DNA of 64,000 nt from an uncultured Candidatus Saccharibacteria bacterium (lineage in GTDB: Bacteria; Patescibacteriota; Saccharimonadia; Saccharimonadales; Saccharimonadaceae): NCBI GenBank assembly GCA_947305705.1, contig CAMZEB010000001.1, positions 62,001 through 126,000 of the forward strand, written 5' to 3'. The translations under genes were made by a program, and so were the position numbers. The notes under the pieces were generated by a model that was not told the DNA's origin, searched no databases, and worked only from the letters and a program-made list of their open reading frames with translations. This document shows positions 50,528-63,991 of the stretch, in pieces (position 1 is the stretch's first letter; each line of letters opens with the position of its first letter).

Positions 50528-51096
50528 AAATCGAGTGGTTTGGGCATTCTTGTTTTAGAATTAACGACAGTTTAGTTATCGACCCATACAAAGACGGGAG
50601 CGTGCCTGGGTATGGAAAATTGGGACTGAAGGCAGATAAAGTAATTTGCACACACGAGCACGCCGACCATTCTGGGCGAGAATGTGTGGAGCTTTCGGGA
50701 GATAGCTGCGTGCTAGAGGTTCAGGAAATTGCGAGCTGGCACGATGAACAAAATGGCGCGTTGCGCGGGCCGAACACGATATTCATCGTAAGTGATGGCG
50801 ATGAAAAATTAGTGCATTTAGGCGATTTAGGACATTTTCCAAATGACGAACAATTGGCAGCTATCAGCAATGCGGATTATTTGTTGATTCCAGTCGGCGG
50901 ACATTACACGATTGACGGTACGATAGCAGCACAAATTTGCGCCGCTGCGAATCCACGCCATATTATCCCGATGCATTATCGCTGGGGCGAGCACGGTTAT
51001 GCCGAAATTGGCACGGACGAAGAATTTTTGGCCGCAATTGCAAAGAGCAGCCTAACAGATAAGCTGATGCGACCAGAATTAACGGCGAGCGAATAG
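50524..51096 (+). CDS. Metallo-beta-lactamase-fold hydrolase (UlaG/UPF0173-like)
   Basis: A 190-residue cytoplasmic MBL protein. MKIEWFGHSCFRI at the start, then the metal motif THEHADHSG (HxHxDH), HLGDLGH and MHYRWG at the end (the third and fourth metal sites). This matches the UlaG/YtkL-type family of small MBL hydrolases. The substrate is unknown. It overlaps the methyltransferase gene by 4 nt and the convergent LRR gene by 18 bp. Confidence 0.88.
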   Translation: MKIEWFGHSCFRINDSLVIDPYKDGSVPGYGKLGLKADKVICTHEHADHSGRECVELSGDSCVLEVQEIASWHDEQNGALRGPNTIFIVSDGDEKLVHLGDLGHFPNDEQLAAISNADYLLIPVGGHYTIDGTIAAQICAAANPRHIIPMHYRWGEHGYAEIGTDEEFLAAIAKSSLTDKLMRPELTASE

Positions 51097-54000
51097 ATTA
51101 CGCTTGGCAGTAATAGCAATTACAGCGGCGGTTAGCGAGATGAATACGATTGTATAGACAGCCATATTGTCGGCGAGGGTAATCGGATTTGAAGGATCGG
51201 AGTATGGATCAATATCTGTGTCTGGCTTATTGTTTGTGAAAGCGTCCGTATAGATAACATTGATGAGCCTGACACCATCTGTCGCTTGGTCGCGAATAAA
51301 CTCGTAGTCTATTTCGGCAAAGTTTTCATTGTCGTAGCGAAGTTCGCTCATAGGAACCGGCGTATCCCAAATCGTGCCAAAGTCAGGATCGGCAGCAATC
51401 GTTGGAAGCATATCTTCGAAGTGTAGATTATTTTCGCTGCGTGGATATGACACACCATCAAATTCGCCCCAGTTGTCCGATTGAAGCACGATACCATCGC
51501 GGCGGAGCGCATAGACAACAACGTTAGATTTATCGAAATCGTCTGGATTTTCGTAGAGTTCAACAGTCGGATCGTTGGACGTAATGTAGAGAACTTCGTC
51601 GAGTGGGTAATATTCGCCATCGAAATCGTCGCGACCATTGTATGCGGCATAATCTTTCGCAGGCGAGGTTGTATAGGCGTAGATGTCTGTTCCCTCTGGA
51701 ATGGTTGGACCAAGCGTTTCTTCGTCATCGCCATCTGCACCCATACCGCTAATTGGTGCTTCATAACCAGGGAGGTTTTCGTCTAGCACTACAGTATTAC
51801 CCCAAATGAAGATGCGTTTTAGTTTGTTATCGTTTGCAAAGGCTGCATTATCTATACGTTTGACCTTGTATGCTACTGATGCAGTTTCGAGTTCTGGAGA
51901 ATCGTAGAAGGTCTTTTCTGGGATTATAGCGTTACTGAAGGTACTTGGTACATCTACGCTCTTCAATGCTTTCATCTTCGAGAAGACTTCACCTGCGGAG
52001 GCATCGAATTTAGCAGCATAGAGGTTGAAGTCTGAATCTGCATTACCGATGCTTGTTAGACCAGTATTTGTGAAGGCATTGATGCCTAGGATAATGTCTT
52101 CACTGCTGATGTTTGGCGAGAACTTAACTGTCTTGAGTTTTTCATCATTCATGAAGGCTTTATCGTCAATCTCACGAATGTTTATGTTATTGCTCATATC
52201 GACAGTTTCGAGATTGTTACACATATTGAAGGCTGAATAGGTAATCTTCGGTAGATTATTGATGACGACTTCCTTCATGTCCATGTTCCAGAATTCTTCA
52301 CCGTTATCATAATCGCTGACTGGACCTTCAACACCCTGATCCATTGCTGTTAATGAGCTAGAATCGATGATGAGTTTATCTACACTGACGTTCCAGAGTA
52401 GCTGGTGAACTCTCTGGCTGCTCGAATTTGCAACCGTCAGATTTGGCTTAATTGTCACTGTATTATAGTGGACATCGGTATCTCCGGTCGAGATTGCTGA
52501 CCAGCCAATGCTCGTAACCGTGCTTGGGATAACAAGATCATCAGTAAAATCCGTATCATAGAAGGCTGCTTGGCCCATCGATAGGAGGCCTTCCTTGAAG
52601 GAATTCACGACGTGAATATCTGAGCGCATAAAGGCAGATGAGCCGATAGTTTTGAGCGTTCTTGGGAATTCGAATTGGCCGCCAACCTCAGCCATATAGA
52701 AGGCCGCACCGCCAATCGTCTCAAGACCCTCTGCAATGCTCAGGCCGCCAAGTTTCGACTCTTGGAAGGAGTTGCCATTAATTGCCCTAAAGCTACGTGG
52801 TAAAGCAACTGTGCCACCGACTTCTGACTGGTAGAAAGCAGAGCCATTTATCGATTCAAGGCCCTCGTTTAGATTAATGCCGCCAACTTTTGACCATTGG
52901 AAAGCCGCGTCACTAATCGCGGTAAGCGACGAAGGAATAGTGACAGAATCAGTTATCTCGGCTTGCATAAAGGCTGCTCTATTCAAGTTTTGAAGGGTTT
53001 GAGGGAGAATGAGCGTGCCGATTTTTGCGCTATGGAAGGAATCAGAATTGTTTGTAAGCTTCGTCCATTTTGCTTCTCCGAGATCGACTTTTTCAAAAGT
53101 GAGGCCAGCAAAAGTGCCAGGATTACCAGGTATATCCATTACTGAGTTTGAACCGAATTTGAGAATGCCATATGATTCTCCTGAGGTCATTTGACCCTCG
53201 TTCAAATACGTTTGGCTTTCTTTCATCGTCTTATTAAAGATCGTATAGAAGGTTTCGAAGTTCTTGCCAGTCACAATATCCTTTAATTGCGGATCTTCAT
53301 AGTTTCTTTCGAGTATATGTGATGAAACTTCATAGTAAGCACGCTCTTCGCTTCCCGCCCAGTCGATTACCGATTGTGGGAGGGCGTAAAGTTTATCATT
53401 ATACGGAGCCGTAACAAGGGCGCCGAAATCCGCATCAATCTCGATGTTGCGAAGATTCGCATTGTTTGCAAAGGTTCCTTCATGAAGCGAAGTAACGCCA
53501 CTTGGAATATATACGTCACGAATGCCAGTTTCCATAAAGGCACGTGGGCCAATGTATTTTAGATTTGACGCATTCAAATCAGCGGTCAGATTCGTGTCAC
53601 CCCAGAATGCTTCGTACCCGACATATTCAAGAGAGGAAGGAAGATTTTTGATTGTTGCAGTCTTTAGGTTATAACCGTTCTGCGCAGCATTCCTTATCGT
53701 ATATTCATAATGGGCCAGTTTCCAACTCTCAAATGCTCCAGTACCGATGACCTTAACTGTGTCAGGGATTACAATTTCTTCTTGCGTCTCAGTAGAACTG
53801 AAGGCGTGATGGCCTATCACTTCAAGATTTTCAGGAAGCTTGATACTATCAATCTTCGCTTCATTCATAGCAAAACGTGGGAGAACTTTCCACGGCGTTG
53901 CGCTAAGATCAATTTCGTCTGCAATAACAAGACCAAAGAACGAGTCGTAAGTATGGCAGTCATCTCCATAGTTACAAGAAACATTTTCTTTCACTGGGAT

Positions 54001-56496
54001 TTCATGAACGGCTTTTTCAGTAAAGGTGATTTTTCCGAATCGTTGATGATAACTATTGCTATCACTCAGTTCCCTATGATCGCGTTTAATCCCCCAGCGA
54101 TCTACACTCTCTTGACTTTGATAATCCCATGCCCAAGCATACCATTCACCAAAGAGGCGTTTGAATAAGTGCGTATGGTTTGCTTTCGCCGCTTCTTCAT
54201 CCAACCTACCAGTCTGCCAATCAGTAGTCATCATACCATAATCATAGAAGTAATCTGGATTTATCCAGATGATCATTAAATCTGGGTCGAAGATATCGAA
54301 ATCGATTGTAATATCTTCGATTGTAGGAATATTTGAAAAGGCGTGCTCGCCTAGGTAATAAATTTTGTCGTGGAGCGTGATGTTCTTGAGCATCGTCGAT
54401 TCGAAAGCGTAGTCGCCGATATATTTTACATTACGCAAGTCGAAATCAATATTCATATGATATACACGGCGAAAAGCTGCGATGCCTATGAATTCAAGAT
54501 TTTCTGGCAAATTTATCTTCAAATTCGGGCTCCAGGCACCCTCAAAGGCAAGGTTGCCAACGCCTTTTAGGCTTTCTGGGAGATTGATTTCTTCGATGCG
54601 ACGGCTCTTTACTACATCGCAATATTCACCATAGTAGCCCTGATAGCATGTACGCCCAGCAGCAGTAAAGCTGGCCATATTTTCCCAAGTCTTGCCATCG
54701 TCCTGATAATTTGAACCTGCCAAGAATGCTTTGCTGCCAATAAACTCGAAGCCTTCGCCAACGGTTATTTTCTTTAGATTGTTTAGACCTTGGAAGTAAG
54801 CTGGTGCAACAATATTTTTCTTGTTTTCTACATCAGCATAATCATCTTCAAATTCATAGATATAAGTGGCCTTCTCAGTGCCATAGTATTTTCGATTATA
54901 ATACGTCTGGTCAACAGTGCCATACTTGTTTCCGCCGTCTGGATAGTTCACGACTTCTGCATACTCTTGCGTGTATGGATCATAGTGCCAGCGATAATTA
55001 TCATAGGAAATATGGGTTCCGCTAACTGATTCTTCGGCGCCATACGGAGCAAGAACGATTAGTTCCTCAATGGCAGCACTTGCCGTGCCGTCATTTCCGT
55101 AATATCCTCTCGTATCACCATCAAGAACAACGAAGAACGGAAGAGTCGTGCCACTCGTAAGTGTATCGTAAGCGACAGTTACTTTACGAAGATTAGTATT
55201 ACCATAAAATATATTTGACTGAAGATAATTGATAGATTTCGGGAAATAGAGTTCCGTAAAGTTGTTATCTACGAACGCACTATATTCAATTCGTTCAATA
55301 CCTTCCAGATTTACACTAGTTAATCCTGTGCCATAAAATGCACGTGGGCCAATAGTTTTAATTGGAGTCAATGCGAAATTGATGGACGTTAGACCGGAAC
55401 CAGCAAAGGCGCCATCAGTGATCTTTGTGACGTTGCTCGAGAATTCTACTTCACTCAGCATCGCGCAGTCTCTGAAGATGCTCGTGCCGATTGTTTCCGT
55501 CTCGATAATTGCTTTCGTGACGTTAGTATTGCTAAAAATGTAGCCGCCAGCAAAGGCGTCGCCAGAAACCGTGACGGTAGTATCGTGAAGAGTTGAGCCA
55601 GCAAAGGCCGCCCAACCGATATAGTTAAAGTTACTCTCTACGAAATTCGTTAGCTTTAATTTATACCCGCCAAAAACACCTTTAACATCAAGCTTAGTAT
55701 GGTCGCTTGCGGTTATATCGACGTTATAATTGTAGATGCTGTCTTTATCATAGGTATACATACCCCAGCTAGGTATATAACAACGATTCGGGTCGTAATT
55801 TAGACTCGTGACATTTTCCTCTGGCCAGCAGCCAAAATCCGCTACTGTAGGGACATATGCTTCTATTTGAGCCTGCGTCATATTATCGGAGTTTGGTATA
55901 TTAGCGACCATCGTCTTGTGGCTATTACAGTAATACGACTGGCTGTAATCATCGAATACCATTTCTTTACAGACGTAAGCGCTCATAATACCGCCAGGAA
56001 TGTCGCCAATTACTATATTTGGACCGAATACGAGTTCAGTTTCTACCGCTGGGTCAATAATTGGTTTTACGCCAAGGATTTGGATTTTTGAGGTATTTTG
56101 CATATCGAGCTTAGTCGTATCGACAGCTGGCGTGCGGCGCGTAAGACTCGGGTATCTTGAATCTTGTTGTGCCGTATCTGCACTCTTTAGAAAATATGTT
56201 GTTTGCACGGAGCTAGCGCCTGGGACGAGATCGTTGAGCTCACTTAGTGAAGGGACGGTCACGGTAGCGAGGTTTTCTGGTTTATCATAAAACATGATAG
56301 AAAGGCTCGGTTCGCCACTATCAGTAACTAATTCATACTCCCAGCGAATGCCGTTTGAGTCAGTAATGACGTCGTAAGCAGTTGCAGCAGAAGCCGAACC
56401 GCAAATTAAATTTGCTGTAAAAAATGCCGCCATCAAAAACGCAAAGCAAATGCGTCTGATAGTCGGACGATAAATAATCCCTCTATGTTGTCCCAT
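51079..56496 (-). CDS. Giant BspA-like leucine-rich-repeat surface protein
   Basis: A 1805-residue secreted protein. The signal peptide (about 1-38) ends in GSASA. From about 270 to 1640 are many LRR_5 (BspA/TpLRR) units with the form LxxIxxxAFxxxxLTSVxxP, broken by less regular segments. The C terminus is a hydrophobic helix followed by KRNLFARR, but no LPxTG-like motif precedes it (NPITLADN instead), so it is probably held by the membrane helix. BspA-like proteins bind host cells or matrix in oral and gut bacteria. A host-binding role is inference. No clear Shine-Dalgarno is visible before the ATG. Confidence 0.9.
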   Translation of the reverse strand: MGQHRGIIYRPTIRRICFAFLMAAFFTANLICGSASAATAYDVITDSNGIRWEYELVTDSGEPSLSIMFYDKPENLATVTVPSLSELNDLVPGASSVQTTYFLKSADTAQQDSRYPSLTRRTPAVDTTKLDMQNTSKIQILGVKPIIDPAVETELVFGPNIVIGDIPGGIMSAYVCKEMVFDDYSQSYYCNSHKTMVANIPNSDNMTQAQIEAYVPTVADFGCWPEENVTSLNYDPNRCYIPSWGMYTYDKDSIYNYNVDITASDHTKLDVKGVFGGYKLKLTNFVESNFNYIGWAAFAGSTLHDTTVTVSGDAFAGGYIFSNTNVTKAIIETETIGTSIFRDCAMLSEVEFSSNVTKITDGAFAGSGLTSINFALTPIKTIGPRAFYGTGLTSVNLEGIERIEYSAFVDNNFTELYFPKSINYLQSNIFYGNTNLRKVTVAYDTLTSGTTLPFFVVLDGDTRGYYGNDGTASAAIEELIVLAPYGAEESVSGTHISYDNYRWHYDPYTQEYAEVVNYPDGGNKYGTVDQTYYNRKYYGTEKATYIYEFEDDYADVENKKNIVAPAYFQGLNNLKKITVGEGFEFIGSKAFLAGSNYQDDGKTWENMASFTAAGRTCYQGYYGEYCDVVKSRRIEEINLPESLKGVGNLAFEGAWSPNLKINLPENLEFIGIAAFRRVYHMNIDFDLRNVKYIGDYAFESTMLKNITLHDKIYYLGEHAFSNIPTIEDITIDFDIFDPDLMIIWINPDYFYDYGMMTTDWQTGRLDEEAAKANHTHLFKRLFGEWYAWAWDYQSQESVDRWGIKRDHRELSDSNSYHQRFGKITFTEKAVHEIPVKENVSCNYGDDCHTYDSFFGLVIADEIDLSATPWKVLPRFAMNEAKIDSIKLPENLEVIGHHAFSSTETQEEIVIPDTVKVIGTGAFESWKLAHYEYTIRNAAQNGYNLKTATIKNLPSSLEYVGYEAFWGDTNLTADLNASNLKYIGPRAFMETGIRDVYIPSGVTSLHEGTFANNANLRNIEIDADFGALVTAPYNDKLYALPQSVIDWAGSEERAYYEVSSHILERNYEDPQLKDIVTGKNFETFYTIFNKTMKESQTYLNEGQMTSGESYGILKFGSNSVMDIPGNPGTFAGLTFEKVDLGEAKWTKLTNNSDSFHSAKIGTLILPQTLQNLNRAAFMQAEITDSVTIPSSLTAISDAAFQWSKVGGINLNEGLESINGSAFYQSEVGGTVALPRSFRAINGNSFQESKLGGLSIAEGLETIGGAAFYMAEVGGQFEFPRTLKTIGSSAFMRSDIHVVNSFKEGLLSMGQAAFYDTDFTDDLVIPSTVTSIGWSAISTGDTDVHYNTVTIKPNLTVANSSSQRVHQLLWNVSVDKLIIDSSSLTAMDQGVEGPVSDYDNGEEFWNMDMKEVVINNLPKITYSAFNMCNNLETVDMSNNINIREIDDKAFMNDEKLKTVKFSPNISSEDIILGINAFTNTGLTSIGNADSDFNLYAAKFDASAGEVFSKMKALKSVDVPSTFSNAIIPEKTFYDSPELETASVAYKVKRIDNAAFANDNKLKRIFIWGNTVVLDENLPGYEAPISGMGADGDDEETLGPTIPEGTDIYAYTTSPAKDYAAYNGRDDFDGEYYPLDEVLYITSNDPTVELYENPDDFDKSNVVVYALRRDGIVLQSDNWGEFDGVSYPRSENNLHFEDMLPTIAADPDFGTIWDTPVPMSELRYDNENFAEIDYEFIRDQATDGVRLINVIYTDAFTNNKPDTDIDPYSDPSNPITLADNMAVYTIVFISLTAAVIAITAKRNLFARR

Positions 56497-58663: not shown

Positions 58664-59251
58664 TTAGTTTTTTTCTAACTCAGAGACGAATTTTTTGCTC
58701 GTAAACAGGAAGCAGCCGATGATTGCGCCGATAGAGGCGGAAATTAGGTCAAACATTGTATCATCGACGCCTGGTGTCACTAATTGCTGCATACTTTGCC
58801 CGAGACATTTATCGCAGAAGAATTCAAAATATTCCCACAAAACTGCGATTGTGACACTTAGCGCAAAGATAAATAGCATACGGAATAGTTGTGGAGTTTT
58901 TTGTGCTTTGAAAAAGACAATTGCATAATAGCCGACAATAGTCGAAACGACGCCAGACCCAAGATGAACTACCTTATCGTAATACGGAACCGTCTTATAA
59001 AGGTCAAGACTAATCCCTAGGCTGAGAGCGGCAAAAAGAAAAATATAATATATTAGCTGAATGCGAAACGGAACTTTGATTTTAAATAGTTTTTCGACAA
59101 TAGGCGGGAGGAACGGGAGACCAAGACCGGCGAAAACGCCACCCCACTTATTGTAATTTGGATCCGTAAGAACCCACACGAGACAGAAGAGCGCAAATAA
59201 TACGAATAGCACCCGAATTATTATGATAAAACTACGTTTAAATTTACTCAT
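58664..59251 (-). CDS. Multi-pass membrane protein, DUF2238/YjdF-like
   Basis: A 195-residue membrane protein with about five helices. The pattern YYDKVVHLGSG...AVLWEYFEFFCD...DDTMFDLISASIGAIIG is like DUF2238 (YjdF) proteins, whose function is unknown. It lies 17 nt behind the sortase gene of the pilus operon but has its own -10 box with the 6-nt spacing, so it may be read both ways. Confidence 0.75.
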   Translation of the reverse strand: MSKFKRSFIIIIRVLFVLFALFCLVWVLTDPNYNKWGGVFAGLGLPFLPPIVEKLFKIKVPFRIQLIYYIFLFAALSLGISLDLYKTVPYYDKVVHLGSGVVSTIVGYYAIVFFKAQKTPQLFRMLFIFALSVTIAVLWEYFEFFCDKCLGQSMQQLVTPGVDDTMFDLISASIGAIIGCFLFTSKKFVSELEKN

Positions 59252-59268: not shown

Positions 59269-59997
59269 TTACCGATTGTAACCGACTAAAAGAACAGCGC
59301 GCTGTCTTGAATGTTTATAACAAGTAGAAAGCAGAAGGAGCGTATTTGGATACTTATCTGGCACATTTTTATTTATCGATAAGGACCCAATGTAAGAAAT
59401 GATTTCTGCGTTGGTATTATTGGCGTTCGTATCGATATTGTATGCGTATTCACTATCGTTCATTATGATGGCGAAGTTTAATATCGATAGTTCATGCTGC
59501 GAGCCGTCACTTAAATAAATTCTACCTGTACTATGACCGCTAAAATAGCCTGCATCTTCGAATTTATTTAGTGCGCCGAACATTTGATCGCCATTCATAT
59601 TATGCCCATAAATAACCGCGTAATCATCGGCAAGTAAATCGCTCCTATAATCAGCAAAAATATTGCCCGCAATCGAATATTCTTTTTTGTAATCGTGGTT
59701 TAAATAAAAATTGTTGTTAGTTGTTTGTGTAATTGGGAAATCTATATCTGCATTGTCTATCGTAATCCAAGCAATAATATCCGAATTCACCTTTCGCAAT
59801 TCGGCTATACGCTCATCGTCTGGCGTATTTTCGATAATTTTACTTGCGCCCGCTATCACATTCGTTTCATTGCGCAAGCTAACGACGTCATACACCGCAT
59901 AGAGACATATACATAAGATAGCAGCAAAAAAGATTATTATTATTCGACTAATAATTCGATCAATAATGTTTACAACTTTTGTTGCCCTAGATTGCAT
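59269..59997 (-). CDS. Class B sortase of the pilus operon
   Basis: A 242-residue sortase with one N-terminal membrane helix (about 14-38) and the SrtB-type fold. The catalytic residues can be seen: His in YGHNM (H132), Cys in LLLSTC (C226) and Arg in RQRAVL (R233). The long insert between His and Cys fits class B. In streptococcal FCT loci a class B sortase (SrtC1/SrtB type) polymerises the backbone pilin, and the gene order here gives it the same role. It overlaps the signal-peptidase-like gene by 11 nt. Confidence 0.92.
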   Translation of the reverse strand: MQSRATKVVNIIDRIISRIIIIFFAAILCICLYAVYDVVSLRNETNVIAGASKIIENTPDDERIAELRKVNSDIIAWITIDNADIDFPITQTTNNNFYLNHDYKKEYSIAGNIFADYRSDLLADDYAVIYGHNMNGDQMFGALNKFEDAGYFSGHSTGRIYLSDGSQHELSILNFAIIMNDSEYAYNIDTNANNTNAEIISYIGSLSINKNVPDKYPNTLLLLSTCYKHSRQRAVLLVGYNR

Positions 59998-60535
59998 GAG
60001 TACGGAAAATTCCTATTATCTGACCGGTTATTTCATTTTTGTTAATAGCGCCAAACGTGCGCGAATCATCCCATTCGTTACGATTGTCGCCAAGAATAAA
60101 GAACAGATCGTCCGCAACTTTATACGGATAGCTAACCGTTGAATTCTCTGGGAAACTATAGTCGCCATAAGTGGTAAGGTCCTCTAGGTGACCATTAATT
60201 GTAATCTTACCCTCTTCATTGATGTCGATAGTATCGCCAGCTTTTGCTACAACTCGACCTATACAGGTGCGTTTTTCGCATTTGTAGCTGACTACGTCAC
60301 CGATTGAATAGTCGGAATTGAGATGGAATATTAGCGCCAAGTCGCCGCCTTTCGTAGTAGGAGACATAACGTTCGTATCTATTCGAATAAAACCATAAAT
60401 GCGGAATGCTAGAATGTAAAAAATCAGGAATATGCCAACAATTTTTGCGCACAAAATCACAATACGACGCCGTAGCTCGGGCGACACCCGAGCTACTTTC
60501 TTTGGTGGTTGATACTGCTGTTGCGTTGGTGTCAT
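59987..60535 (-). CDS. SipA-like signal peptidase homologue, predicted inactive
   Basis: A 182-residue protein with one membrane helix (about 25-50) and the S26 fold. The box-B region reads NVMSPT where active enzymes have SMxPT, so the nucleophile is replaced by Val56. The box-D region reads IGRVVAKAGDTI where active enzymes have KRxVGLPGD, so the general-base Lys is replaced by Gly93. The box-E motif LGDNRNEWDDSRTFG is kept. Streptococcal SipA also lacks both catalytic residues and aids pilus assembly as a partner of the pilin and sortase. It overlaps the pilin stop by ATGA. Confidence 0.85.
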   Translation of the reverse strand: MTPTQQQYQPPKKVARVSPELRRRIVILCAKIVGIFLIFYILAFRIYGFIRIDTNVMSPTTKGGDLALIFHLNSDYSIGDVVSYKCEKRTCIGRVVAKAGDTIDINEEGKITINGHLEDLTTYGDYSFPENSTVSYPYKVADDLFFILGDNRNEWDDSRTFGAINKNEITGQIIGIFRTHAI

Positions 60536-61563
60536 TTTTTATCAGCAAACGCTTTCTTTGAATAGATAATTGCGCCAACAGATATTATGCCAAGAAGAAT
60601 GTACGGCCAGATATTCAGGAAGACACCAGTTGGCGTGCCTGAATCTTTCGTATTTACGAATGCTGCGGCGTTGGCTGAAGCGGTAGGCATCACCGTTTGC
60701 TGCCCGGTCGTGCGAGACGACGTGGCTGCATTAGTACCAACTGCGACTGTTGTGGTGTAGTCGGAATAGGTGTCTTCAGTAATCGTATAAGTAGAACCGA
60801 CAGGAATTTGGCTAGTGGTGCCGTTATAGCCGATGCGTACTGTGTCGCCAGATTTGAGGTAAACTACGCAGTTGCTTCCGGCCGTACAGCTCGAAGCGGA
60901 ACCAGAACCAGATGATGCGCCATTAACCGAATAAGTGCCAGTTCCAGAGACATTGACTGTGAATTTGAATAGCTTATTAGTGTCGCCAGCATTACCTTGG
61001 ACTGACTTGGTGATTTGAATATCTTTGTTCGAATATTCTTTCGGAGAGCTGAAGTCGAATTGGGTGACCTTCGTGCCGGACGAATTCTTTAGATAGCCCG
61101 TTGCAACTTGGCCAGTCACGTTATTGTTCGAATCCAGCGTATTGCGGAGATCTAGCAGGAGAGTATATGTCGTGTTGTCAGCAGTGTAGCCACTAACGGC
61201 GGTTTCAGCAACCGTGACCGCAACTTGCGTAGGTGTATTGTTAGAAAAAGTGATACCAGATACGTCTATGTTGGCGCATTTAGACACTTCGTGATTGGCG
61301 TCGTAGTTTGCATTAGAAAATGTAACTTTTGCGTTTGTTGGTAAGCCAGTGACCACGCCTGATGTAGCGGCCGTGAAAGTATAATTGAAAGTTGCGGTCG
61401 TTTTGTCGTAAGCGTTCGTGATTTTCTTACAAATCTTCACTGTAGTTGGCGAGGATAAAGCCACCGTCGCGGCGTTAGTGTTGACTGCGTTTGCGATATT
61501 TGCGCTAGCGGCAAGTATTGCCCCTAGAAGTGTTATTTTTATTACTCTTTTTTTACTTATCAT
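60532..61563 (-). CDS. FctA-like backbone pilin
   Basis: A 343-residue secreted protein. Signal peptide (about 1-32), then two beta domains. The first starts with VKICKKIT and FNYTFTA; the second has ITKSVQGNAGDTNKLFKFTVNV, VYLKSGDTVRIG and IPVGSTYTITEDTYSDYTTT, the pattern of Spy0128/FctA-type pilin domains with Lys-Asn isopeptide bonds. The sorting signal is GTPTG-V, a hydrophobic stretch and KKAFADKK; EVPTG is the matching motif in FctA. GGAG precedes the ATG. Small size and position next to SipA and a class B sortase mark it as the polymerised subunit. Confidence 0.85.
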   Translation of the reverse strand: MISKKRVIKITLLGAILAASANIANAVNTNAATVALSSPTTVKICKKITNAYDKTTATFNYTFTAATSGVVTGLPTNAKVTFSNANYDANHEVSKCANIDVSGITFSNNTPTQVAVTVAETAVSGYTADNTTYTLLLDLRNTLDSNNNVTGQVATGYLKNSSGTKVTQFDFSSPKEYSNKDIQITKSVQGNAGDTNKLFKFTVNVSGTGTYSVNGASSGSGSASSCTAGSNCVVYLKSGDTVRIGYNGTTSQIPVGSTYTITEDTYSDYTTTVAVGTNAATSSRTTGQQTVMPTASANAAAFVNTKDSGTPTGVFLNIWPYILLGIISVGAIIYSKKAFADKK

Positions 61564-61609: not shown

Positions 61610-63991
61610 TTATGTTTTTAATCGCCGTGCCCTCCAGGTTATGTATGCTCCGGCCCCGGCAATCATCATACCGGTCGAAATAAACAATACTGCGCCAACA
61701 TCGAAATCTACACCCGAGACAGGGATGCCATCTTTCGTGTTTATGACTTGCACGGTTTCGTAGCCATTACCAGAAACAGTGCCAGTCTGGCCAACGAATG
61801 TCGTAGTATAGCCATCGCTAGTATAGCTAGCTTCTGTAACTTTATACTGGTAGCCACTACGTAGAGTTAGCGTAATAGTATCGCCGCCTTTGAGTTTGAA
61901 ATTTGCTTTATTGTTTGATAGAGTCAACGTTCCGCTAGTAGTCGTTCCGCCCGATGTCTTGCTATATGAGATTGAACTAAGGGCGGAGTTGTTGCCATTC
62001 CCTGTAATTTCGAAATATATCGTGAATTCTTTGTTCGCATCAGCGCCTGCACCGCGGAGAATTTTTGTGATTTGCACACCGCCATCGGAAGCCAAGGTGT
62101 CCGTCATCGTGATTTCACGAGTCCCGGTTTTTGCTGATGATGGATTAGCCGATGCGATAGTATTATCGTTGCTACCGCTGCCGCTCACGGTAAAGGTAAT
62201 GTTGCTAGTAATCGCATAATTGGTCGGAGGGATTGTTTCTTTTAGAGTATATGTACCAGATGGCAATGCATAGATGGTCGCGCATTGGTTCGTAGATGTC
62301 CATTCGAGCATAGTATTACTTGAGCTAGTATTAGTAATTGCAGACGCAATGTTGCTATCTTGACTAAAGTTAATCGCAGTCGATCCATTTACGCCGGTTA
62401 GCTGAAGCTTTGCACCAGTGAGTAGAGTTCCGCTCGAGTTTTTCTTACAAATCGTGTATGGTATTGGCTGCGCATTTACAGTAATACTATGGTCGTCAAC
62501 AACCTCACTAAAGGTATAAGTATATTTTCTCTTGCCAGACGATCGCGACACATAGGTAAGAACAGAAGGAGCGCCACTACTGGCTGAACTATTAACATTA
62601 TCAATTGTGACTTTATTAATGTAGTACCCTTCGTCAACTTCAATAGTGATAGTTTTGTCCTCACGCCAGAGAACATCATTATCCGTAGAAGTAATTGTTA
62701 GATGGCTGCCATTCGTCCCTTTTGCTGTTTCGACTTTTTTCGTGCCAATAAAGCCTAATTTCGTACCGCAGTTTGAGCCACTCCAGTGGTATTTGAAGCC
62801 TCTCGCATCAACAAGTGCGAGAAATCTCGACGTGTCTTGCGATGGCTGATTATCATCACCAGTGTATCTAGTACCGGATATCCTTAATTGATCATTGCTC
62901 ATTTTGGAAAAATAGAGATAAGTGCCATCTTCGTCAGTCGTCGAAGTAGTACTTCTATCGTCAGGATTATAAGTGTAGATTTTATTATCTTTCAAACCAC
63001 TAAGAATAGTGATGGATTCTGCATAATCATTAGGGGTGCTGCCTTGTGCCAAATATCTCGAGCCAATATTGCCGTCACGATTCGGGTTTAATGTAATAGT
63101 ACAGGATTGCCATGGCGTCGAAGTGGTACAGTCTGTTGCTTGCGGGTATGCACCGTTTGGCGCGGTGCCATTCAACCAATATGATATTCCACCATTATTT
63201 ACGGCGTAATATGTGCTGTCAGTAACATCCAAATCCTCAAAGCTCATTGCCATGGCGCTTTTATCTGCATCTATCAATGTAGAGGTACCAGTTTTATAGA
63301 GCTTAATAGTTACATCATATTCTATGCCATCATAATAACCATTTATAGCGGAATTGTGATAGTAAGTCCCCTCATCGGTGAGCTCGCTAAGCGGATGCTC
63401 CTGAAGCGCAGCGAGAGAATAATGCCAATTGTACCCAAATATGGCGAATTCGTGATAACGGCGTCCACTGGAGTAATATGTAACATTATCGATAGTCATT
63501 TCGACATCATATTTATTGTTGTCTTGATCTTTTGCGGCTTCCGGCCATTTAATTGTAGCGGTGCCAATATTATTCTTTTTTCCGATGGAAGATGCGCCAG
63601 TCATGCCATTGACGGCATTTTTACTAATCACAATGTATTTTCCGCTGCGACTGGATATTTCAAACGTTGCTTTAGAGCTACGCTCATTCTCATATGTGCC
63701 ATTTTGCATTTCGGCGTAAGTGTATTTTTTCGCATCAACCGTAGTCAAATTTCCAGTCGTCGAAAAGACAGCAGTGGATGAATTAGTAGTTATTTTGGTA
63801 GTATCAACGAAAACTTTATTTTCACCTAAGCCGGTCGAGGCGTCCCGCCACCCGTCAGTAATAACAGTCACACCACCGATCTTGCTTTTGACTGCAAAAA
63901 CGTCATTATTAAAGACAAACAAAAAGGCGGCAATAACTGTCGCTAAATAAAGCATCCCTTTCCAGATTTTTTTGTCTGTGTTTTTGAACAT
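61610..63991 (-). CDS. Pilus-associated adhesin with Cna-B and FctA-like domains (Cpa-like)
   Basis: A 793-residue secreted protein. Signal peptide (about 1-33), then an N-terminal region of about 480 residues with no known family, rich in Tyr, Asn and Thr. A Cna-B/SpaA-type domain follows (about 520-620: ICKKNSSGTLLTGAKLQL ... SGTYTLKETIPPTNYAI, with the Glu of the isopeptide triad), then an FctA-like domain (about 640-745: VQITKILRGAGADANKEFTIYFEI). The tail reads IPVSGVDF, a membrane helix and WRARRLKT, a variant sorting signal. It is the first gene of the operon in view; its promoter lies beyond the window. Likely the tip or side adhesin. Confidence 0.83.
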   Translation of the reverse strand: MFKNTDKKIWKGMLYLATVIAAFLFVFNNDVFAVKSKIGGVTVITDGWRDASTGLGENKVFVDTTKITTNSSTAVFSTTGNLTTVDAKKYTYAEMQNGTYENERSSKATFEISSRSGKYIVISKNAVNGMTGASSIGKKNNIGTATIKWPEAAKDQDNNKYDVEMTIDNVTYYSSGRRYHEFAIFGYNWHYSLAALQEHPLSELTDEGTYYHNSAINGYYDGIEYDVTIKLYKTGTSTLIDADKSAMAMSFEDLDVTDSTYYAVNNGGISYWLNGTAPNGAYPQATDCTTSTPWQSCTITLNPNRDGNIGSRYLAQGSTPNDYAESITILSGLKDNKIYTYNPDDRSTTSTTDEDGTYLYFSKMSNDQLRISGTRYTGDDNQPSQDTSRFLALVDARGFKYHWSGSNCGTKLGFIGTKKVETAKGTNGSHLTITSTDNDVLWREDKTITIEVDEGYYINKVTIDNVNSSASSGAPSVLTYVSRSSGKRKYTYTFSEVVDDHSITVNAQPIPYTICKKNSSGTLLTGAKLQLTGVNGSTAINFSQDSNIASAITNTSSSNTMLEWTSTNQCATIYALPSGTYTLKETIPPTNYAITSNITFTVSGSGSNDNTIASANPSSAKTGTREITMTDTLASDGGVQITKILRGAGADANKEFTIYFEITGNGNNSALSSISYSKTSGGTTTSGTLTLSNNKANFKLKGGDTITLTLRSGYQYKVTEASYTSDGYTTTFVGQTGTVSGNGYETVQVINTKDGIPVSGVDFDVGAVLFISTGMMIAGAGAYITWRARRLKT

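What the first reader, a model, noticed from the sequence alone, without database searches (positions are those of the whole stretch)
59987..60535. Signal peptidase homologue with both catalytic residues replaced (Ser to Val, Lys to Gly)
Aligned by the conserved boxes, SMxPT is VMSPT and KRxVGLPGD is GRVVAKAGD, while GDNR and the fold are kept. The streptococcal pilus protein SipA is also an S26 homologue without its Ser-Lys dyad and acts in pilus assembly. The same loss next to a pilin and a class B sortase in a distant phylum points to a shared, ancient or transferred, non-enzymatic role.
Basis: partly seen in the sequence, partly recalled or inferred. Interest (0 to 1): 0.82.

Follow-up and report, generated by a model that had tools for sequence, protein, structure and literature searches.

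The report
Dead signal peptidase in pilus operon
A gut-dwelling Saccharibacterium carries a streptococcus-style covalent pilus operon that includes SipA, a former signal peptidase that has lost its cutting residues and in streptococci is needed for pilus assembly; its relatives also carry drastically shortened versions that could show which part of SipA matters.

Summary
The 182-aa protein at 59987-60535 (-) is an S26 signal-peptidase homologue with Val56 and Gly93 where the catalytic Ser and Lys should be. A third catalytic helper (Ser278 of E. coli LepB) is Trp155. Its nearest solved structure, by sequence and by predicted fold, is S. pyogenes SipA (4N31), ahead of any active peptidase. Its neighbours complete a SipA-type pilus operon: tip-like pilin, major pilin (predicted fold matches Spy0128, T-antigens and PitB), SipA, class B sortase. 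An intact LepB lies elsewhere in the genome. The organism belongs to gut/rumen Saccharibacteria. Full-length SipA is in 28 of 45 genomes of the genus, always followed by the sortase, but only in 2 of 156 sampled genera of the order. All 45 dyad-less proteins analysed (Saccharibacteria, Bacillota, Actinomycetota, S. pyogenes) form one clade apart from catalytic LepB. One clade of saccharibacterial SipAs is rejected (p-AU 0.015), so the operon probably moved between phyla more than once. New here: 17 genus loci carry a reduced mini-SipA (translated examples 72-110 aa) before a class B sortase. They keep the membrane helix and membrane-proximal strands and mostly lack cleft and cap. I file the window protein as a SipA-family member; its assembly function is inferred, not shown.

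The parts
59987..60535 (-). SipA-like pseudo-signal-peptidase, 182 aa; N-terminal membrane helix then S26 domain
   Evidence: Pfam S26; best PDB match SipA 4N31; fold match 4N31 TM 0.84 of target
60368..60370 (-). codon GTT, Val56, at the catalytic Ser position
60257..60259 (-). codon GGT, Gly93, at the catalytic Lys position
60071..60073 (-). codon TGG, Trp155, at the position of the catalytic helper Ser (E. coli Ser278; numbering from own knowledge)
60398..60481 (-). predicted membrane helix, residues 19-46
   Evidence: AlphaFold model
60532..61563 (-). major (shaft) pilin, FctA/Spy0128-like, 343 aa; overlaps the SipA start codon; C-terminal sorting signal GTPTGVF
   Evidence: DUF7601; TIGR03065 22.2 bits over cut-off 21.35; fold matches 3GLE/3B2M E 1e-16 to 1e-18
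59269..59997 (-). class B sortase, 242 aa, with His132, Cys226 and Arg231/Arg233 in place; overlaps the SipA stop
   Evidence: TIGR03064 E 1.9e-41, 141.9 bits against cut-off 153.75; sortase B structures; motif positions
61610..63991 (-). tip-like pilin/adhesin, 793 aa, SpaA and DUF7601 domains near the C-terminus, possible sorting signal IPVSG
   Evidence: Pfam; pilus_ancill_1 matches its C-terminal part only; PDB Cpa 2XI9 E 6e-4

Best explanation
The protein is a membrane-anchored, non-catalytic signal-peptidase homologue of the SipA family. It most likely helps the adjacent class B sortase join the adjacent FctA-like pilin into a covalent pilus carrying the 793-aa protein, probably at the tip. 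The housekeeping LepB would remove the signal peptides. SipA would sit at the membrane and hold or orient the pilin or its sorting-signal tail for the sortase. Shown here: homology, loss of three catalytic residues, clade, operon, fixed sortase neighbour, purifying selection. Inferred: that a pilus is made, that SipA is needed for it, and what SipA binds. Use of the pilus to attach to a host bacterium or gut surface is a guess.
For: SipA 4N31 is the best match by sequence (E 1.5e-25, against 5e-4 for the best active peptidase) and by fold (E 6e-11, against 1.5e-6 for SpsB). One clade of 45 dyad-less proteins including S. pyogenes SipA, 100/98. Lys absent in 45 of 45, helper Ser mostly lost, DSR of box E and M57 invariant. 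The pilin's top 25 PDB fold matches are all streptococcal major pilins, from S. pyogenes and from the type II/islet-2 pili of S. pneumoniae and S. oralis. All 34 full-length SipAs of the genus have a class B sortase downstream on the same strand. The same neighbours occur in Bacillota and Actinomycetota loci. SrtB and SipA trees recover the same saccharibacterial subgroups. dN/dS 0.03-0.12. In S. pyogenes SipA is needed for polymerisation, and changing the residues at and near the dead site has no visible effect (PMC4049620).
Against: No pilus has been seen in this organism. No FctB-like basal pilin was found in the operon, so wall anchoring is unexplained (other sortases exist in the genome). 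Gene order differs from S. pyogenes (SipA after the major pilin). The tip-like protein resembles Cpa only near its C-terminus, with no thioester domain called by Pfam. A second pilin-sortase pair in the same genome has no SipA, so a class B sortase with this kind of pilin does not always carry one.
Confidence: 0.85

Rival explanations
1. It is still a peptidase that uses other residues (Ser58/Lys98 or an acidic residue), dedicated to the pilins.
For: It keeps the S26 fold and box E; Ser58 and Lys98 lie close to the lost positions.
Against: Ser58 and Lys98 are not conserved (13/45 and 8/45). No residue type is fixed at the old Ser and Lys positions. S. pyogenes SipA shows no cleavage and tolerates mutation there (PMC4049620). 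Intact LepB is present.
Confidence: 0.05
2. A decaying signal-peptidase paralogue without function.
For: Catalytic residues lost; some relatives have eroded box E as well.
Against: Intact frames in nearly all full-length hits (three show one TAA, each at the very start of the match where the model runs past the ORF), dN/dS 0.03-0.12, and a recurrent operon place in three phyla.
Confidence: 0.02
3. A SipA-type protein whose partner is not pilus polymerisation but simple sortase-B anchoring of separate surface proteins to the wall.
For: Class B sortases often only anchor proteins (own knowledge); no basal pilin is seen; a lone pilin-SrtB pair exists in this genome.
Against: The pilin has the fold of polymerising shaft pilins and the operon carries two pilins, as in pili known to polymerise.
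Confidence: 0.12

Closest known systems
SipA/LepA of S. pyogenes FCT-2, -3, -4 pili (PDB 4N31, PMC4049620)
   Same: S26 fold, Ser and Lys both lost (Lys to Gly in both), encoded with an FctA-type pilin and a class B sortase, same clade
   Different: Ser replaced by Val not Asp; different phylum; gene placed after, not before, the major pilin; about 38% identity
PI-2 pilus locus of S. pneumoniae/S. oralis (PitB shaft pilin; SipA-type protein reported in the literature)
   Same: shaft pilin fold; needs a signal peptidase I homologue, reviewed in PMC7900414
   Different: SipA of PI-2 itself was not compared here
C. perfringens VR-10B pilus operon (PMC8088525)
   Same: three pilins, a signal peptidase homologue and a class B sortase in one transcript
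   Different: sequence not compared here; catalytic state of its peptidase homologue not checked
Type I signal peptidase LepB/SpsB
   Same: fold, box E DSR, membrane anchor
   Different: all three catalytic positions differ; separate clade

Membership tests
SipA (non-catalytic pilus assembly factor) | S26 fold with N-terminal membrane helix | tested here: met
SipA (non-catalytic pilus assembly factor) | Ser-Lys dyad lost | tested here: met
   V56, G93
SipA (non-catalytic pilus assembly factor) | in one operon with FctA-type pilin and class B sortase | tested here: met
   coding frames overlap on both sides of SipA
SipA (non-catalytic pilus assembly factor) | groups with streptococcal SipA apart from catalytic LepB | tested here: met
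   100/98
SipA (non-catalytic pilus assembly factor) | required for pilin polymerisation, no peptidase activity | not testable with these tools
   needs bench work
Type I signal peptidase (enzyme) | catalytic Ser and Lys | tested here: not met
Type I signal peptidase (enzyme) | helper Ser (E. coli Ser278) next to box E | tested here: not met
   W155
FCT-2/3/4-type pilus locus | class B sortase with intact triad | tested here: met
   His132, Cys226, Arg231/233; TIGR03064 E 1.9e-41 but 141.9 bits is under its cut-off of 153.75
FCT-2/3/4-type pilus locus | major pilin of Spy0128 fold with QVPTG-type sorting signal | tested here: met
FCT-2/3/4-type pilus locus | Cpa-like tip adhesin with thioester domain | tested here: inconclusive
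   only the C-terminal part matches; no thioester domain called
FCT-2/3/4-type pilus locus | basal pilin FctB | tested here: not met
   no such ORF in the operon
[quoted passage not shown]
   order here is tip, fctA, sipA, srtB

The most novel reading that the evidence does not exclude
The job of SipA is done by its membrane helix and the membrane-proximal strands, not by the old peptide-binding cleft. Saccharibacteria hold a natural deletion series: full SipA (about 160-190 aa), an intermediate of 105 aa, mini-SipA of roughly 84-110 aa, and forms of 72-73 aa, all next to a class B sortase and in all but the intermediate case seen next to a pilin.
Probability: 0.3. Interest if true: 0.78.

Novelty: new member of a known kind. 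Interest (0 to 1): 0.62.

Why it matters
How SipA helps class B sortases build pili is an open question. A SipA family shared by three phyla shows which residues stay fixed over long times. The mini-SipA series offers ready-made test constructs. It also gives gut Saccharibacteria, whose host attachment has so far been discussed through type IV pili (PMC12206443), a second possible kind of filament.

Tried and rejected
The plasmid search found only weak matches annotated as signal peptidase I (26-32% identity). I considered and rejected an active peptidase with alternative residues (not conserved) and a decaying pseudogene (dN/dS). In-frame TGA codons in second-locus sortases looked like a changed genetic code; a release factor 2 match is present in all 12 genomes searched (in 10 of them above the family cut-off) and TGA appears to end some genes there, so a genome-wide change is unlikely. 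The report of intact-dyad SipA homologues in S. suis and S. agalactiae (PMC4049620) was not followed up. Literature searches of the held library found no account of a SipA/sortase pilus in Saccharibacteria; subscription papers are not covered.

Full report
OBSERVATION. The ORF at 59987-60535 (-) encodes 182 aa with an S26 domain. Val56 and Gly93 occupy the catalytic Ser and Lys columns. phmmer against the PDB ranks S. pyogenes SipA first (4N31, E 1.5e-25; 4K8W, E 2e-23); the first active peptidase follows at 5e-4. The gap-free alignment equates V56 with SipA Asp48 and G93 with SipA Gly85. Those residues were shown by crystallography to lie where E. coli LepB has Ser90 and Lys145 (PMC4049620). 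An AlphaFold model (mean pLDDT 83) matches 4N31 best (E 6e-11, TM 0.84 by target), then active peptidases. I had no coordinates, so geometry is by alignment. An intact LepB is encoded elsewhere in the genome.

OPERON. On the minus strand the order is tip-like pilin 61610-63991, major pilin 60532-61563, SipA 59987-60535, class B sortase 59269-59997. The last three overlap by a few bases, and 46 bases separate the first two. The major pilin carries DUF7601 and a QVPTGV-class sorting signal just over its cut-off. Its model (pLDDT 85) has as its 25 best PDB matches only streptococcal major pilins, from S. pyogenes (Spy0128, T-antigens) and from the type II/islet-2 pili of S. pneumoniae and S. oralis. 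TM-scores on the whole chain are modest (0.33-0.58). The sortase is closest to class B structures and keeps its His, Cys and Arg. The tip-like protein is like Cpa only near its C-terminus.

ORGANISM AND DISTRIBUTION. Close relatives are named Candidatus Saccharibacteria, several from sheep, goat and cattle gut. In the genus, 28 of 45 genomes hold 34 full-length SipAs; each has a class B sortase downstream on the same strand. In the order, 15 of 393 genomes match at E<=1e-9, in 2 of 156 genera, both of the same family. Class B sortases were found in 3 of 287 genomes across the phylum, including this genome and one other of its genus.

RELATIVES ELSEWHERE. A scan of bacterial and archaeal genomes gave SipA-like genes in Bacillota and Actinomycetota, many from gut and rumen. 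In these loci the S26 genes without the dyad sit with class B sortase and usually DUF7601-type pilins, while the great majority with an intact dyad have no such neighbours. Exceptions to the clean picture: two S26 genes near LPXTG proteins (L068, L083) have Arg at the Lys position, and L053, with an intact dyad, lies next to a long ORF that the sortase profile hit. The scan started from SipA, so it is not an unbiased count.

TREES. With 25 LepB rows, all 45 SipA-like rows, including 4N31, lie on one side of a branch with 100/98 support. Of three catalytic positions LepB has Ser 25/25, Lys 25/25, Ser/Thr 25/25; SipA-like rows have Ser 9/45, Lys 0/45, Ser/Thr 7/45, while M57, G64, D157, S158, R159 and G162 are invariant. 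The simplest reading is one loss of activity before the spread. The saccharibacterial rows fall in three places; holding them as one clade is rejected (p-AU 0.015), although the rows were partly chosen by similarity to the query and some branches are long. The sortase tree shows the same saccharibacterial subgroups, as expected if the operon moves as a unit. dN/dS of 0.03-0.12 between close pairs shows purifying selection.

MINI-SIPA. A second locus in the genus, pilin plus class B sortase, often carries a short ORF between them: 17 cases, all with the sortase downstream, 13 translated. They are 72-110 aa and align to the N-terminal half of the SipA profile (hhalign probability 98.9, E 1.5e-17). 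By eye they also keep the C-terminal GKVIAxLxVRGF strand. Most lack the Lys-bearing strand, cap and box E; L164 (105 aa) is intermediate and passes the S26 Pfam cut-off, and no pilin was seen next to it in the stretch read. [quoted passage not shown] the parts kept look like that sheet plus the helix. This last step is inference, since no mini-SipA was modelled. Pairwise dN/dS is 0.16-0.28. This genome's own second locus has no mini-SipA.

MECHANISM AND NOVELTY. The best-supported account is a non-catalytic assembly partner of the class B sortase, as in S. pyogenes, where SipA is needed for polymerisation, the residues at the old site are dispensable, and binding to pilin or sortase could not be shown in vitro (PMC4049620). 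The window protein is a new member of the SipA kind in a new phylum. The mini-SipAs are a new variant of it, but they lie outside the window.

Noticed in passing
L154, L155, L156, L158, L159, L161-L168 (second SrtB locus of the genus): Mini-SipA ORFs of 72-110 aa just before a class B sortase, mostly after a pilin; membrane helix and first and last strands kept, catalytic half mostly lost.
   Followed up: partly
L154, L160, L161, L162, L165, L166, L168 (second-locus sortases): One or two in-frame TGA codons at positions that are Trp in relatives, with the rest of the frame intact, at different places in different species. RF2 matches are present, so read-through or early decay rather than a genome-wide code change.
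   Followed up: partly
L120:7744-9437 (G000:C1): Second class B sortase plus DUF7601 pilin in the window's own genome, without SipA or mini-SipA.
   Followed up: yes
L120:12347-14188 (G000:C1): Camelysin/TasA-like protein next to a SipW-like signal peptidase, resembling the B. subtilis biofilm-fibre locus.
   Followed up: no
G000 whole genome: Six sortase genes in an 885-kb genome, many for an organism of this size.
   Followed up: no
window 51079-56496: 1805-aa surface protein with many BspA-type leucine-rich repeats and a C-terminal membrane segment.
   Followed up: no
window 58664-59251: 195-aa membrane protein (weak DUF2238 match, under cut-off) directly downstream of the sortase; a homologue is there in the close relative L004 but not in most others.
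   Followed up: no
A3; FctA C-termini in L043, L046, L049: Sorting signals of the major pilins vary strongly within the genus (PTGVF, PTGLF, PAGRF, ISGHF, VDSKAF); could be compared with SipA subclades for co-variation.
   Followed up: no
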